The position numbers and the translations under genes are program-made. Source: Streptomyces sp. S.PB5 (GTDB lineage Bacteria > Actinomycetota > Actinomycetes > Streptomycetales > Streptomycetaceae). From it: a stretch of 64,000 nt of DNA. How positions within the stretch are numbered: the stretch's first letter is position 1; every line of letters starts with the position of its first letter. A model generated the notes under the pieces. The model was given only the letters and a program-made list of their open reading frames with translations, was not told where the DNA came from and did no database searches. This document shows, in pieces, positions 44,622 to 49,172 of this stretch. The stretch lies in assembly GCF_030403745.1 (NCBI RefSeq), contig NZ_JAQMWP010000013.1, positions 62,001-126,000 on the forward strand, written 5' to 3'.

Positions 44622-45092
44622 TCACCCCTTGCGCCGGTTCTCCCTCCGACGTACGAACTTCAGCCCCGACCAGTCGTCCCCCAACGCCGCGACCTTCACA
44701 TCGACCACCCCGAGCGGGAGGAAGATCTCACGGAGGTCGTTCTCGCCGATGTCGCTGACATGTCCGGCGGCCTTCCGCGGCCACGCGATCCACAGCATGG
44801 AGTCGTCGGCGAGCTCCGCCACGAGCCCGGCCGCCTCCGCCGCCAACTCCCCGCGCTCCCGATAGAAGGCGAGGGCGACATCCACCCCGTCCGGGCCACC
44901 GTCGACCACCTCGCACCCCTGCGGCAGCCCCGGAATCCCCCACCCCTCGGGGGCATGCCTCAGCCCCACCCTCTCCCCACCTTTGATCCCGACCTTCCGG
45001 GCAAGAGGCGTACCCGAGTAGCCGGAGTCACGGGAGTGGCCGGAGCCACCGGAGTCACCGGAGTCACCGGAGTCACCGGAGTAGCGGGACAT
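44622..45092 (-). CDS. DUF3052 family protein with repeat-expanded N-terminus
   Basis: 156 residues. ATG 45092 with GGAGG 6 bases upstream. The DUF3052 domain begins at GYSGTPLARKVGIKGGERV and includes DVALAFYRERGELAAEA, DDSMLWIAWPRK and VKVAALGDDWSGLKFVRRRENR. Homologues usually start near the YSGTPLA segment; here some 22 residues of repeated Ser-Gly-Asp (SGDSGDSGDSGG) precede it, encoded by 9-bp repeats. Function of the family is unknown. Confidence 0.88.
   Translation of the reverse strand: MSRYSGDSGDSGDSGGSGHSRDSGYSGTPLARKVGIKGGERVGLRHAPEGWGIPGLPQGCEVVDGGPDGVDVALAFYRERGELAAEAAGLVAELADDSMLWIAWPRKAAGHVSDIGENDLREIFLPLGVVDVKVAALGDDWSGLKFVRRRENRRKG
45018..45083. repeat. 9-bp microsatellite coding for Ser-Gly-Asp repeats
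   Basis: Plus-strand units of GGAGTCACC and variants (GGAGTGGCC, GGAGCCACC) repeat head to tail through about 45018-45083, inside the 5' end of the DUF3052 gene. The last three units before the start codon are identical. Confidence 0.85.
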
Positions 45093-45147
45093 CACACACC
45101 TCCTCCCCCATCGTGACGGCCCGGACGGGGTATGTCCGCCCGAGGAT

Positions 45148-45315
45148 GTGGATCATGAGCGATCCGTGGGCGGGAGTGGACTGTGGATCAGCGCCCGCGA
45201 CCTGGCCCGCATCCGTCAGCTGTGTCTGCAGAACAGGGTCTGGCACGAGCGCCGGGTGATCTCCGCCGACTGGATCGCCGCCCTGTGGACCCCATGCCCC
45301 GTCAATCCGTCGTAA
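45148..45315 (+). pseudogene. Remnant of a serine beta-lactamase-family hydrolase
   Basis: A frame ending in TAA at 45313-45315 encodes a segment with SGLWISARDLARIRQL, RRVISADWIAALW and TPCPVNP. This matches the C-terminal third of class C beta-lactamase-like / penicillin-binding esterases, where the usual continuation is a YGYLWW motif. Here the frame stops right after VNPS, and neither the SxxK nor YxN parts are found upstream. It is therefore a short relic. The 337-base gap between the DUF3052 and lipoprotein genes holds nothing else recognisable besides a likely promoter area. Confidence 0.6.
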
Positions 45316-45429: not shown

Positions 45430-46128
45430 ATGCCTCCCAGCATTTTCCAGCATTTACGTCGGCATCTCCTGCGGTGCACACCCGGCTCGCCGAGCTTGCG
45501 GATCGCGGCGCTGGCTTCAGCTCTGGCCGTGGGGTTCATCTGCGGGTGCACAGGCAGTACGAGTACACACCAGGCGAATGGATCTACACCCTCGGCAGCA
45601 CCCTCGCCCGTCTCATTTCCGTCCCGTCCGCCAGACGCCGCGCAATGCCCGGGAACGATTCTTGATCATCGAGATATCAAGCATCCTGACCTTGGAGCGG
45701 TTCGCGTCTTCCTGATCCGGCGGACCGATACCGACACCCTCACCGGGTGCATCGCATCGGTCACCGGCAGCGGTCGGGTACTGAAATCCATCGGCGTGGA
45801 AATCTACGAAAACGAACTGAAATTCGCCGATCCCGTATCCGACGCCACCAAGAACACCTTCGTGATCTACAACCCAGGACGCTATGACGGGGTGGTGGTG
45901 CTCGTACCCAACGAGACCGGGTACGAGGACATCGCTTGGACCGACCCGGAGGCCCATTACCGCGGCGGACGGCTCGCCCACTACAACGCGCGGCTCGTCG
46001 GCCCCGGCGAAGACGGTCGCTACACCGTCGTCAAATCCGAGAACTCGTGCAACCCCAGCTGTGCCGACGGCTCCATCTCGCAGGTCGTGCTGCATTGGAA
46101 CGGCCATGACTACCTGCCGGCCCAATGA
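45430..46128 (+). CDS. Putative lipoprotein coupled to the TIR-WD40 gene; contains a TTA codon
   Basis: 232 residues; ATG 45430 with GGGAG upstream. The N-terminus has a basic region, a hydrophobic core (IAALASALAVGFICGC) with a lipobox-like FICGC and then a Ser/Thr/Pro linker. The mature domain contains several Cys (AQCPG, TGCIAS, NSCNPSCADGS) and a beta-rich pattern (GAVRVFLIRRTDTDTL, NTFVIYNPGRYDGVVVLVP). No family recognised. Codon 9 (45454-45456) is TTA, the rare leucine codon read only by the bldA tRNA in Streptomyces. The stop overlaps the next start by 4 bases (ATGA), so the two products are probably made together. Codon choice includes many A/T-ending codons. Confidence 0.82.
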   Translation: MPPSIFQHLRRHLLRCTPGSPSLRIAALASALAVGFICGCTGSTSTHQANGSTPSAAPSPVSFPSRPPDAAQCPGTILDHRDIKHPDLGAVRVFLIRRTDTDTLTGCIASVTGSGRVLKSIGVEIYENELKFADPVSDATKNTFVIYNPGRYDGVVVLVPNETGYEDIAWTDPEAHYRGGRLAHYNARLVGPGEDGRYTVVKSENSCNPSCADGSISQVVLHWNGHDYLPAQ

Positions 46129-48935
46129 CGGCGAGACGCTTCTCTTTTAAACCCCTTCGGACAGGTCTGACATTCGCTTGGCTGCGCTCACGCATAATCC
46201 AGCGCAGGCGAATAAGGACCGATCTCGGACACGGCGCCTTCCTCTCCTACAGCGGGGACCGCGATCGAAAATGGCTGCCGCACCTGCAGCGGGCTATCGA
46301 AAAGCAGTCCCGCCCCTGGTACAAGCCGCCTCGGATCAGAGTCTTCCTCGATGACAGCGGTGTATCGATCGGTCCGCATCTCTGGGGAAAAATCGAAGCC
46401 GGCCTCGCCCGCTCCGACTGGCTCGTGGTCATGGCATCGCCGGAGGCAAAGGCATCGCCGTGGGTCGACCGGGAGATCGAGTGGTGGCTGGGGAACAGGA
46501 CGGTCGACACCATCCTGCTCGTCGTGACCGCGGGACAGCTGGTTTGGGACGAGCAACGGAGCGACTGGGATCCGGAACGCTCGACTGCCCTGCCCGCCCG
46601 CCTGTCGGGGCGGTTCAGGCAGCAGCCGGTCTGGAAGACCACGGTCCTCAGCCACCCCGACGACGGTGTCGCTCCCGTGCCGGACATCGACAGTGTCGCG
46701 CTGGGCATCGCCTCCGTCGTACGCGGCCTTCCAGAGGACGACCTGAAGTCGGAGGGCATACGCGACACCAAGCGCAACCTGCGGATAGCCCGAATCGCCG
46801 TAGCCGCACTGACCTTGCTCCTTCTGATCGCGAGCACGGTGTCCGTGATCGCACTCTTCGCACGCGCCGAAGCCACCCGCCAGCGCGACCACGCCGTCGC
46901 ACAGCAGTTGATCAGCCAGAGTTCCTCCCTTGCGACACGTGACCCCTTCGGCGCCCGATTGAAAGCCCTGGCCGCATGGCGGATCGACCCCACGCCGGAA
47001 TCCCGCCTCGCCGTTCTCAACGCCGCCGTCAACCCCGAATCCGGCCTGCTCGCTCATTCCGCTCCCGTGGGAACGGTTGCATTCAGCCCGGACGGCAAGA
47101 CCATTGCCACCGGCAGCGACGACGGCACCGTGCGGCTCTGGAACGCGGCGACGCAGCGGCAGATCGGCACTCCGTTCGTCGGGCACACTCGGGGCGTCAC
47201 GTCGGTTGTCTTCGGCCCGGGCGGCAGGACCCTGGCCACCTCGAGTCTCGACGGCACTGCGCGGCTCTGGAACGTCGCCGACCACACACAGATCGGTGCC
47301 GCATTCAATGCGCGTGCCGGGATGATCGATTCGGTCGCCCTCAGCCCTGACGGCGGGACACTCCTCACCGGTGGCGCGGACGGCTCCGGGGCCCTACGGA
47401 GATGGGACGTGGCGACACGCCGTCAGATCGGCGCGCCGCTCGGAGGCCAGGCCTATGGCAGTTCCGCCCTGTCCTTCAGCCCTGACGGCACAATCTTCGC
47501 CGCCGCAGCCGACGACCACCTCCAACTCTGGAATGCCGCCTCCTACAGACCCATCGGCAAGGCGCTGAAGACAGCCGGCTACGGAATCTCGTCGGTCTCC
47601 TTCAGCCAGGACGGCGAGACCATTGCTGCCGCCGATGCCGACGGCAGCGTCCAGCTCTGGGACACCACCACCCTCGCCCCGGTCGGAAAGCCGTTCACCT
47701 CCGGTGCCGCAGGGGCTCAGTCCGTGGCCTTCAGCCCGGACGACACGCTGCTCGCCACCGCGTACGGCGACGGCAGCGTGCAGCTCTGGGACATCGTGCG
47801 CCACGTCCGTCTGGGAGCGCCGTTCACCGGCCATACAAGCAGTGCCTCGGCCGTGGCCTTCAGCCCGGACGGATCGACCCTGGTCAGTGCGAGCGATGAC
47901 ACCACGGTTCGACTGTGGGACGTCCGCACACAGCGACAGACCGGAACGGCAGTCGACGCCGGGGAGTTGTGGGCGCCGACGCTGAGCTCTCATGGCCGGA
48001 TCCTGGCCGTTTCGGGATCCGACGCCGCCGTGCACTTCTGGGACATCGCCGCAGGCCGTCAGAGCCGTGATCCGCTGGTCATCGGCGACTTGGCGGTGGA
48101 CTCCCCCCTCGCCTTCAACCCTGACAGCACTGTGCTCGCGACGACGTCCTATCAGACAAATCACGCTGTGAAACTCTGGGACATCACAGCCCGCCGCCAG
48201 ATCGGCATGGAGCTGCCCCACCACACCAGCGCTGTTCTCGCCATGACCTTCAGTCCCGACGGCAGAAGACTCGCCGTTTCCGACGATGAATCCGTGCGGA
48301 TATGGAATCTGGCAACGCGACGCCAGATCGGCACAGCACTCGATGTCCAGGCAGCACACGTCGAATTCAGCCCCGACGGCCGCACCATCGCCACCAGCAA
48401 CGAGGTCTCCACGGTGACGCTCTGGGACGCTGCCACTCATCGCCGCATCGGCGAGACGCCCTCCCGTCACACCGCACAGATCTACGCGGTGAAATTCAGT
48501 CCCGACGGCACAATGCTCGCCACCGCAAGCCGCGACAACACCGTCCGGCTCTGGAGCGTGGCCACACGTGAACAGATCGGAGCACTGACGGGCCATCGCG
48601 ACGGCGTGACATCCCTTGCCTTCAGTCCCGACGGGAAAACGCTGGTCACCGGCAGCATGGACCAGACGCTCAGACTCTGGGACGTCGCCACCCGACAGCA
48701 AATCGGCGCGCCCCTCGAAGGGCACAGCGATCGCATCATCGGCGTGGGTTTCGGTCCCGCCGGCAAGACGGTTGTGAGCTGGGGCAAAGACAACACGGCG
48801 CGCCTGTGGGACGTCGACCCGACAGTGGACCCGGTGCACTCGCTGTGCGCGTGGGCAAGAGGCACGTTCGACGCCGACCAGTGGCGCGCCTACGTACCTT
48901 CGGGGCCCGAGGTCCGGCCGCTCTGCCCGGAGTAG
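46125..48935 (+). CDS. TIR-like domain, transmembrane, 14 WD40-repeat protein
   Basis: 936 residues. Residues 37-125 form a TIR_2-like domain: AFLSYSGDRDRKWLPHLQRAIE, RVFLDDSGVSIGPHLWGKI, ARSDWLVVMAS, and SPWVDREIEWW where Glu117 sits at the place of the NADase glutamate. A single transmembrane segment lies at about 224-246, followed by a helical linker (EATRQRDHAVAQQLISQS). From about 308 to 915 are 14 WD40 repeats (HSAPVGTVAFSPDGKTIATGS ... RLWNAAT), enough for two seven-bladed propellers. The predicted arrangement puts the TIR domain inside; whether the WD40 part is also cytoplasmic or outside cannot be fixed, since a single segment with an inside N-terminus would export it. Coupled to the lipoprotein upstream. 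Function unknown; signalling or defence is inferred. Confidence 0.88.
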   Translation: MTARRFSFKPLRTGLTFAWLRSRIIQRRRIRTDLGHGAFLSYSGDRDRKWLPHLQRAIEKQSRPWYKPPRIRVFLDDSGVSIGPHLWGKIEAGLARSDWLVVMASPEAKASPWVDREIEWWLGNRTVDTILLVVTAGQLVWDEQRSDWDPERSTALPARLSGRFRQQPVWKTTVLSHPDDGVAPVPDIDSVALGIASVVRGLPEDDLKSEGIRDTKRNLRIARIAVAALTLLLLIASTVSVIALFARAEATRQRDHAVAQQLISQSSSLATRDPFGARLKALAAWRIDPTPESRLAVLNAAVNPESGLLAHSAPVGTVAFSPDGKTIATGSDDGTVRLWNAATQRQIGTPFVGHTRGVTSVVFGPGGRTLATSSLDGTARLWNVADHTQIGAAFNARAGMIDSVALSPDGGTLLTGGADGSGALRRWDVATRRQIGAPLGGQAYGSSALSFSPDGTIFAAAADDHLQLWNAASYRPIGKALKTAGYGISSVSFSQDGETIAAADADGSVQLWDTTTLAPVGKPFTSGAAGAQSVAFSPDDTLLATAYGDGSVQLWDIVRHVRLGAPFTGHTSSASAVAFSPDGSTLVSASDDTTVRLWDVRTQRQTGTAVDAGELWAPTLSSHGRILAVSGSDAAVHFWDIAAGRQSRDPLVIGDLAVDSPLAFNPDSTVLATTSYQTNHAVKLWDITARRQIGMELPHHTSAVLAMTFSPDGRRLAVSDDESVRIWNLATRRQIGTALDVQAAHVEFSPDGRTIATSNEVSTVTLWDAATHRRIGETPSRHTAQIYAVKFSPDGTMLATASRDNTVRLWSVATREQIGALTGHRDGVTSLAFSPDGKTLVTGSMDQTLRLWDVATRQQIGAPLEGHSDRIIGVGFGPAGKTVVSWGKDNTARLWDVDPTVDPVHSLCAWARGTFDADQWRAYVPSGPEVRPLCPE

Positions 48936-49091: not shown

Positions 49092-49098
49092 TTGTCTG

Positions 49099-49172
49099 AG
49101 CCGCCTTCGGGATTCGAACCCGAGACCTACGCATTACGAGTGCGTTGCTCTGGCCATCTGAGCTAAGGCGGC
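49099..49172 (-). tRNA. tRNA-Thr (anticodon CGT)
   Basis: Read on the minus strand, it has acceptor stem GCCGCCT paired with AGGCGGC, D-arm TAGCTCAGATGGCCAGAG, anticodon stem ACGCA/TGCGT with loop CTCGTAA (anticodon CGT, codon ACG), and T-arm TCGGG-TTCGAAT-CCCGA. The discriminator base is U and no CCA is encoded. No disrupted copy of its 3' end is seen in the window. Confidence 0.97.

What the first reader, a model, noticed from the sequence alone, without database searches (positions are those of the whole stretch)
45430..48935. Lipoprotein plus TIR-TM-WD40 pair: candidate uncharacterised signalling or defence module
Seen: a coupled pair (4-base overlap) of an orphan lipoprotein and a 936-residue protein joining a TIR_2-like domain with the NADase-position glutamate (SPWVDREIEWW, Glu117), one membrane segment and 14 WD40 repeats. 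Known: bacterial TIR domains often cleave NAD or make signal nucleotides in antiviral abortive infection, and WD40 or TPR arrays often serve as sensors. Inference: the lipoprotein senses outside events or regulates the TIR protein. Location beside a tRNA gene and a gene relic, with less GC-biased codons, suggests acquisition. TIR-WD40 proteins exist elsewhere, but I know of no characterised system with this lipoprotein partner.
Basis: partly seen in the sequence, partly recalled or inferred. Interest (0 to 1): 0.82.

Follow-up and report, generated by a model that had tools for sequence, protein, structure and literature searches.

The report
Lipoprotein-coupled TIR membrane receptor of Streptomyces
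Two overlapping Streptomyces genes appear to encode a membrane-spanning alarm protein, with an NAD-cutting type of domain inside the cell and propeller-shaped sensor domains outside, plus a surface lipoprotein that accompanied it in every genome examined; it may be a bacterial counterpart of a Toll-like receptor, but nothing has been tested at the bench.

Summary
In detail: lipoprotein (45430-46128) and TIR-TM-WD40 protein (46125-48935) overlap by four bases. All 15 distinct lipoprotein loci found, one of them decayed, adjoin the same TIR-WD40 clade (clade support 100/100). Lipoprotein was not found beside other TIR-WD40 clades; several of those have another partner, a 2-TM/helical protein, which also lies near 10 of the 15 pairs. 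The WxxxE glutamate (E117) is invariant in 12 of 12 clade members and 19 of 19 wider-family proteins examined. One TM helix, a modest positive-inside bias and an invariant C-terminal cysteine pair place the propellers outside, on the lipoprotein's side; nSTAND1-TM-WD40 paralogues share these features. The lipoprotein domain is absent from Pfam, recurs on two plasmids without a TIR gene, and remotely resembles LppP/LprE. Best reading: a TIR receptor with an outward sensor and a lipoprotein co-receptor, triggering NAD+ cleavage. Against: no defence-island signal, no activity data, poor models of TIR and lipoprotein, and one genome with a broken lipoprotein beside an intact TIR gene, so it is probably not an obligatory inhibitor. 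New variant of a known kind.

The parts
45430..46128 (+). Lipoprotein gene, 232 aa (signal + lipobox Cys40; mature domain residues 73-230)
   Evidence: no Pfam, NCBIfam or PADLOC match at E up to 1
45430..45549 (+). Signal segment up to lipobox cysteine C40
   Evidence: Read from the alignments; the lipobox pattern is recalled, no signal-peptide predictor was on hand
45646..46119 (+). Mature lipoprotein domain (residues 73-230), four invariant Cys (C73, C107, C207, C211); distant LppP/LprE-like similarity
   Evidence: Four Cys invariant in 13 of 13 aligned sequences incl. two plasmid copies
46125..48935 (+). TIR-TM-WD40 gene, 936 aa, start overlaps the lipoprotein stop by 4 bases
46239..46526 (+). 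TIR domain (residues 39-134), predicted cytoplasmic
   Evidence: PF13676 E 1.5e-9, PF08937 E 4e-5
46473..46475 (+). Glu117 of W113-xxx-E117, position of the NADase glutamate
   Evidence: 12 of 12, 19 of 19 wider-family proteins examined; aligns with WxxRE of solved TIRs in weak matches, E 0.33-0.42
46794..46850 (+). Single transmembrane helix, residues 224-242
46860..47039 (+). Conserved helical linker, residues 246-305; TM-linker shared with nSTAND1-TM-WD40 paralogues
47046..48815 (+). WD40 propellers, residues 308-897 (about 14 blades), predicted extracytoplasmic
48846..48926 (+). C-terminal segment from invariant Cys908 to Cys934 (likely disulfide)
49098..49172 (-). tRNA-Thr(cgt); its 3' side is the variable interval that holds the pair

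Best explanation
The pair encodes a two-component membrane receptor. The 936-residue protein crosses the membrane once, with its N-terminal TIR domain in the cytoplasm and its WD40 propellers outside. The co-translated lipoprotein is anchored on the outer face of the same membrane and acts as a co-receptor or ligand-presenting subunit. When the propeller/lipoprotein ectodomain binds a cue in the cell envelope (phage, competitor, neighbour or envelope damage), receptors cluster, the TIR domains assemble, and Glu117 cleaves NAD+ (depletion or a signal nucleotide), shutting down or killing the hyphal compartment. Shown here: gene unit, motif, coupling, relative conservation, sequence features that predict the topology. 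Inferred: enzymatic activity, physical interaction, trigger and outcome.
For: Coupling: 15 of 15 distinct lipoprotein loci (G000, G284, G274, G119, G246, G118, G070, G066, L072, L073, L074, L076, L078, G356, G495) have the TIR-WD40 directly downstream on the same strand; the 12 clade rows treed form one side of a branch, 100/100. E117 invariant in those examined. Topology: K/R in the 15 residues before the TM exceed those after it in 12 of 12 clade proteins, 4-5 against 3-4, and in 18 of 22 other TM-WD40 proteins. C-terminal Cys pair, 26 apart, in 12 of 12 clade proteins, 11 of which have no other Cys after the TM; a C-terminal pair 24-26 apart in 19 of 19 wider TIR-WD40 and 3 of 3 nSTAND1-TM-WD40 paralogues, whose N-terminal STAND NTPase (3 of 3) and HTH (1 of 3) should be cytoplasmic. 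The lipoprotein domain has four invariant cysteines, fitting an oxidising outside. TIR is the most conserved part (mean pairwise identity 0.83), propellers the least (0.60); dN/dS of the propellers is 1.6 to 3.7 times that of the TIR in four pairs, as for effector and sensor.
Against: No enzymatic, binding or phage data. AlphaFold2 confidence was poor for TIR and lipoprotein, so neither active site nor interface could be tested. Charge bias is modest, and in the wider set 2 of 22 are tied and 2 of 22 reversed. Some ectodomains have an odd number of cysteines (L055, L053|7, L116, L064). No defence-island signal. In G495 the lipoprotein is broken while the TIR frame is open with E117, so the lipoprotein may be dispensable. 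The lipoprotein domain occurs without a TIR gene on two plasmids.
Confidence: 0.5

Rival explanations
1. Cytosolic sensor: the hydrophobic helix merely tethers the protein and the WD40 propellers face the cytoplasm, sensing invader proteins as cytosolic WD40/TPR arrays of STAND proteins do; the lipoprotein is an accessory in another compartment.
For: WD40 arrays as intracellular sensors are the usual model (APAF-1, passage of PMC7159879; APAF-1 is among the top Foldseek matches). Gene coupling does not prove a shared compartment. Charge bias is weak or reversed in 4 of 22 relatives.
Against: A single TM with the TIR inside puts the propellers outside; C-terminal cysteine pair in all 34 proteins examined; the partner is a predicted lipoprotein with conserved Cys.
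Confidence: 0.15
2. Developmental, envelope-stress or kin-recognition receptor rather than defence: the module senses envelope or neighbour signals and uses NAD+ cleavage to regulate differentiation or compartment death.
For: No defence-island signal around 13 loci. WD40 proteins of S. coelicolor have been linked to differentiation (only the title of that reference was seen, in PMC5587647). Faster propeller change also fits recognition of self variants.
Against: Sporadic distribution (8 of 295 Streptomyces genomes), different chromosomal sites, low GC3 and tRNA-side location fit a mobile conflict gene better than a developmental one.
Confidence: 0.25
3. Lipoprotein as antitoxin-like restraint: it holds the receptor inactive, and its loss triggers the TIR.
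For: Gene order, overlap and strict coupling resemble two-gene toxin-antitoxin units.
Against: In G495 the lipoprotein gene is disrupted while the TIR-WD40 frame is open and keeps E117; such a strain argues against an essential restraint unless the TIR is silent or the break is a sequencing error. Lipoprotein and TIR lie on opposite faces of the membrane in the topology above.
Confidence: 0.1

Closest known systems
Bacterial TIR_2 (PF13676) proteins, including Thoeris ThsB-like TIRs
   Same: TIR family match and WxxxE glutamate
   Different: Built into a transmembrane protein with propellers; no ThsA-like gene among the window neighbours scanned
nSTAND1-TM-WD40 and HTH-nSTAND1-TM-WD40 proteins of Streptomyces
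   Same: Same TM-linker, WD40 and C-terminal Cys pair; three such paralogues in this genome
   Different: TIR in place of HTH/STAND; no NTPase; dedicated lipoprotein partner
Other Streptomyces TIR-TM-WD40 clades, some with a 2-TM/helical partner ('cl1', name made here)
   Same: Same architecture, E117, TM and Cys pair; in two cases a 4-base overlap with the partner gene
   Different: 31-42% identical; partner is an unrelated membrane protein, not the lipoprotein
Animal Toll-like receptors
   Same: Single-span receptor, repeat ectodomain outside and TIR inside (works like; passage of PMC7075850)
   Different: Reversed order, propellers instead of LRRs; no evidence of common descent of the architecture
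Cyanobacterial metacaspase-TM-CHASE2 protein (one sequence, passage of PMC3501461)
   Same: Predicted outside receptor domain coupled through the membrane to an inside death-type effector
   Different: Caspase homologue instead of TIR, CHASE2 instead of WD40, four predicted TMs, no lipoprotein mentioned in the passage
LppP/LprE lipoproteins (PF14041)
   Same: Lipoprotein domain; hhalign 63-65% probability over 70-72 columns, none of 60 column shuffles above 2.9%
   Different: No direct Pfam match; I recall no TIR link for LppP/LprE

Membership tests
Bacterial TIR NADase effectors | TIR domain by profile | tested here: met
   PF13676 38.8 bits, cut-off 28
Bacterial TIR NADase effectors | Catalytic glutamate in WxxxE | tested here: met
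   12 of 12 and 19 of 19 examined of the 29 wider matches; alignment with solved TIRs weak, E 0.33-0.42; no structural check, TIR model poor
Bacterial TIR NADase effectors | NAD+ cleavage | not testable with these tools
   Needs an assay
Thoeris | ThsB-like TIR | tested here: inconclusive
   PF08937 24.4 bits, cut-off 21.2; PADLOC ThsB E 0.0026
Thoeris | Adjacent effector gene answering the TIR product (ThsA) | tested here: not met
   None among the window neighbours scanned; for the other loci only the 25 commonest of 142 Pfam families and 25 of 60 PADLOC families were shown, with no ThsA among them
STAND (effector-NTPase-repeat) conflict proteins | NTPase between effector and repeats | tested here: not met
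   TM and a 60-residue linker lead from the TIR part (to about 220) straight into WD40 at 308; no NTPase in residues 1-222
Toll-like receptors | LRR ectodomain, TM, C-terminal TIR | tested here: not met
   Order and ectodomain differ
LppP/LprE lipoproteins PF14041 | Pfam profile match | tested here: not met
   No match at E up to 1; profile-profile similarity only
Bacterial lipoproteins | Signal segment plus lipobox Cys | tested here: met
   Conserved G-C in 13 of 13 distinct copies, by inspection; no signal-peptide predictor on hand; lipidation untested
Known anti-phage systems (PADLOC) | Match to a system's core genes | tested here: not met
   Only a repeat-driven match (HEAT-ARM_XIII in the WD40 part) and two weak TIR-part ones; none for the lipoprotein
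EACC1 two-gene membrane conflict systems (Kaur et al. 2020) | EACC1 constant component | not tested
   A passage on the system was seen; no profile compared

The most novel reading that the evidence does not exclude
A bacterial functional analogue of Toll-like receptors: a TIR receptor that listens outside the cell through extracytoplasmic propellers plus a surface lipoprotein and executes NAD+ destruction inside. It exists in co-localised versions (lipoprotein type and 2-TM/helical type) that may form one composite surveillance system in multicellular Streptomyces.
Probability: 0.35. Interest if true: 0.85.

Novelty: new variant of a known kind. Interest (0 to 1): 0.62.

Why it matters
As I recall, the characterised bacterial TIR defence proteins respond to events inside the cell. 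A TIR whose sensor faces outward, with a dedicated lipoprotein partner, would mean that bacteria also use Toll-like outside-in signalling, and would offer a small, directly testable system (one glutamate, one lipidated cysteine, one topology). It would also suggest a topology for other actinobacterial TM-WD40 proteins: propellers outside, with a C-terminal disulfide.

Tried and rejected
Defence-island test. 106 neighbour genes of 13 pair loci (of 115 listed; the 9 left out are from L056, a near-copy of L055) against PADLOC at 1e-10 matched 60 families, 25 shown: mad3 in 4 members, TAP-like hydrolase 2, PDC-M51B 2, the other 22 in one member each, many being PD-T4-6 models that probably hit one and the same protein. 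103 control genes (of 130; left out: 14 of L153 and 13 others) from the same tRNA site in other species matched 8 families, TAP-like 3 and mad3 1 among them. Families are not genes, the output gives no per-gene list, and I claim no enrichment. Pfam on the 106: the 25 commonest of 142 families are mostly ordinary transport and metabolism.

Island ends: no second copy of the tRNA 3' end in the window (20 bases, up to 3 mismatches); 3 of 11 relatives have an exact 16-base copy 2.6-6 kb away. An integrated element is possible but not shown here.

Gene relic: a fragment at 45184-45309, read by eye as a serine-hydrolase remnant, was not supported.

Structure: lipoprotein model mean pLDDT 49.9; TIR part mostly 40-55; neither was interpreted. 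Only the TIR-WD40 model was searched, and its matches are propellers. Solved-structure search with the lipoprotein profile: best E 0.035 and 0.2. The folding alignments held only the window and the search for related loci sequences, as the tool asks.

Dropped rows: 5 of the 13 lipoprotein-matching genomes (E 1.8e-5 to 9e-4), 6 of 14 and 3 of 4 were short weak matches, all but one (G242, residues 111-194) in the N-terminal signal/linker part. 10 of the 29 wider matches were not examined further.

Phages: no lipoprotein match. Literature: eight searches of the held open library listed no paper that I could see to treat a lipoprotein-coupled TIR-WD40; subscription papers are mostly missing.
Full report
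What is there. The window lies in an unnamed 10.85 Mb genome, by its kin a Streptomyces (records of the same genus sample are named Streptomyces). The two genes are as described: a 232-aa lipoprotein at 45430-46128 and a 936-aa protein at 46125-48935, overlapping in ATGA. The larger protein has a TIR_2 domain (39-134), one transmembrane helix (224-242), a helical linker of about 60 residues and a WD40 region of 589 residues, about 14 blades. The lipoprotein has no Pfam, NCBIfam or PADLOC match.

Is it a unit? Of 295 Streptomyces genomes searched with the lipoprotein, 13 matched, 8 strongly; the other 5 are short and weak and were dropped. The same 295 searched with the TIR-TM-linker part gave 24 genomes: the same 8 hold a 70-100% identical TIR (the window's own copy included) beside the lipoprotein; 14 others hold only distant TIR relatives; 2 (G201, G220) match in the TM-linker alone. 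In 15 of 15 distinct loci the TIR gene follows on the same strand, overlapping or with its first aligned codon within about 90 bases. 12 clade TIRs (without the frameshifted G119 copy, G356 and G495) form one group at 100/100 in a tree of 31 rows. In 246 genomes sampled over the phylum only the window's own copy was strong.

Outside Streptomyces the mature domain occurs at the C terminus of a 624-aa lipoprotein-like protein on a Rhodococcus plasmid (42% identity) and of a 331-aa protein on a Gordonia plasmid (37%), with no TIR gene listed within 9 kb (that gene table is incomplete) and no match of the TIR query in either record. Its four cysteines are invariant in 13 of 13 aligned sequences, plasmid copies included. 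The domain shows profile similarity to LppP/LprE (PF14041): probability 63-65%, against at most 2.9% for 60 column shuffles, 0.1% for an unrelated alignment and 0.2% for the reversed one. I take it as an unlisted, LppP/LprE-like extracytoplasmic domain recruited by the TIR gene; this is a resemblance, not a membership.

A second module. Near many pairs lies a gene for a roughly 260-aa protein with two predicted TM segments and a helical domain ('cl1', no significant Pfam match). It is near 10 of the 15 pairs (9 of 13, three of them partial: L054, L074, L078; G356 yes, G495 no). A second, distant TIR-WD40 is near 6 of 13 pairs (L052, L053, L057, L058, L073, L074), in L073 in broken frames. In L061 and L062 cl1 overlaps the start of a lipoprotein-free TIR-WD40 by four bases. 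Among 13 fetched lipoprotein-free TIR-WD40 loci (L059-L071), 5 have cl1 and none the lipoprotein domain. Of the 295 genomes, 39 matched cl1, 12 with the full-length type (E below 1e-90, one with an internal stop), and in 11 of these 12 a TIR-WD40 lies close by. 6 of the 8 lipoprotein genomes have such a cl1 against 6 of the other 287 (Fisher p 3e-8; not corrected for kinship). In G246 and G118 the two modules lie about 47 kb apart. The window has no cl1; G000 has only a helical-part relative on another contig. The neighbouring second TIRs belong to different subclades, so the two kinds of module seem to have come together more than once.

How it probably works. E117 in W-V-x-x-E is invariant in 12 of 12 clade proteins and 19 of 19 wider-family proteins examined (19 of the 29 wider matches). 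Topology: the 15 residues before the TM carry more K/R than those after in 12 of 12 clade proteins (4-5 against 3-4), and in 18 of 22 others (19 TIR-WD40, 3 nSTAND1-WD40), with 2 ties (L115, L067) and 2 reversed (L063|4, L068). So the TIR is probably inside. After the TM, 11 of 12 clade proteins have only two cysteines, both invariant and near the C terminus; a C-terminal pair 24-26 apart is found in 19 of 19 other TIR-WD40 and 3 of 3 nSTAND1-TM-WD40 paralogues of this genome. Further cysteines mostly come in pairs; L055, L053|7, L116 and L064 have an odd number. This is what disulfides in an extracytoplasmic propeller would give. The paralogues' STAND NTPase (3 of 3) and HTH (1 of 3) domains should be cytoplasmic. 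TIR is the most conserved part and the propellers the least; dN/dS is 0.37-0.57 in the propellers against 0.15-0.26 in the TIR over four pairs, and 0.25-0.35 in the lipoprotein over three. Together: effector inside, faster-changing sensor outside, lipoprotein on the sensor side. NAD+ cleavage, physical contact, trigger and outcome are inferred.

Acquisition. GC3 is 0.73 and 0.80 against a median of 0.929 over 48 called genes. The pair lies on the 3' side of tRNA-Thr; beside the same tRNA and hydrolase gene, 11 of 11 fetched relatives lack it within the 13-15 kb fetched on that side, while L072 has it there with other genes upstream; 3 of 11 show an exact second copy of the tRNA 3' end. None is in the window. 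Of the 12 other pair loci scanned for tRNAs, 11 have none in the fetched stretch, so the module sits at various sites.

Against a defence reading. PADLOC shows no convincing enrichment among neighbours and no phage record carries the lipoprotein. In G495 the lipoprotein gene is broken but the TIR-WD40 frame is open over 939 residues with E117; in G119 the TIR gene is frameshifted and the lipoprotein whole. The first speaks against an essential inhibitor; both are single genomes and may be sequencing errors.

Literature. I saw passages of PMC7159879, PMC5587647, PMC3501461, PMC10907252, PMC7075850 and PMC8195603, no whole paper. They cover TIR, STAND and propeller conflict proteins and TLRs; the nearest precedent seen is a predicted metacaspase-TM-CHASE2 receptor (PMC3501461). 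None of the passages describes a TIR-TM-WD40 with an outward propeller or a lipoprotein partner, nor did the listings of eight searches; most subscription papers are not held.

Verdict. A real, strictly coupled two-gene module; most likely a transmembrane TIR receptor with an extracytoplasmic lipoprotein partner. New variant of a known kind (TIR effectors), with a topology that would be surprising if proved.

Noticed in passing
L052, L053, L057, L058, L073, L076, L061, L062, L158 and others: Family 'cl1': a roughly 260-aa protein with two predicted TM segments and a helical domain, no significant Pfam match, close to TIR-TM-WD40 genes in 11 of 12 genomes with the full-length type.
   Followed up: partly
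L098:7606-9480 and L099:8473-9468: Rhodococcus and Gordonia plasmids carry the lipoprotein domain at the C terminus of larger proteins without Pfam match; the Rhodococcus one seems to have its own lipobox.
   Followed up: partly
window 49098-49172; L148, L151, L153: The 3' side of tRNA-Thr(cgt) looks like an integration hot spot in Streptomyces: an exact second copy of the tRNA 3' end 2.6-6 kb away in 3 of 11 relatives.
   Followed up: partly
L114, L115, L116 (G000): Three nSTAND1-TM-WD40 paralogues share the TM-linker and C-terminal Cys pair, suggesting that their propellers too are outside the cell.
   Followed up: partly
L159 (G495) and L054 (G119): Natural decay: lipoprotein broken with an open TIR frame, and the reverse.
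   Followed up: partly
G000 contigs C1, C3, C5: This genome has 14 TIR_2 matches, several clustered (C1 about 937-940 kb, C3 222-225 kb, C5 224-227 kb), possibly other TIR systems.
   Followed up: no
window 44622-45095: DUF3052-like gene matched only over the C-terminal two thirds of the profile, possibly truncated.
   Followed up: no
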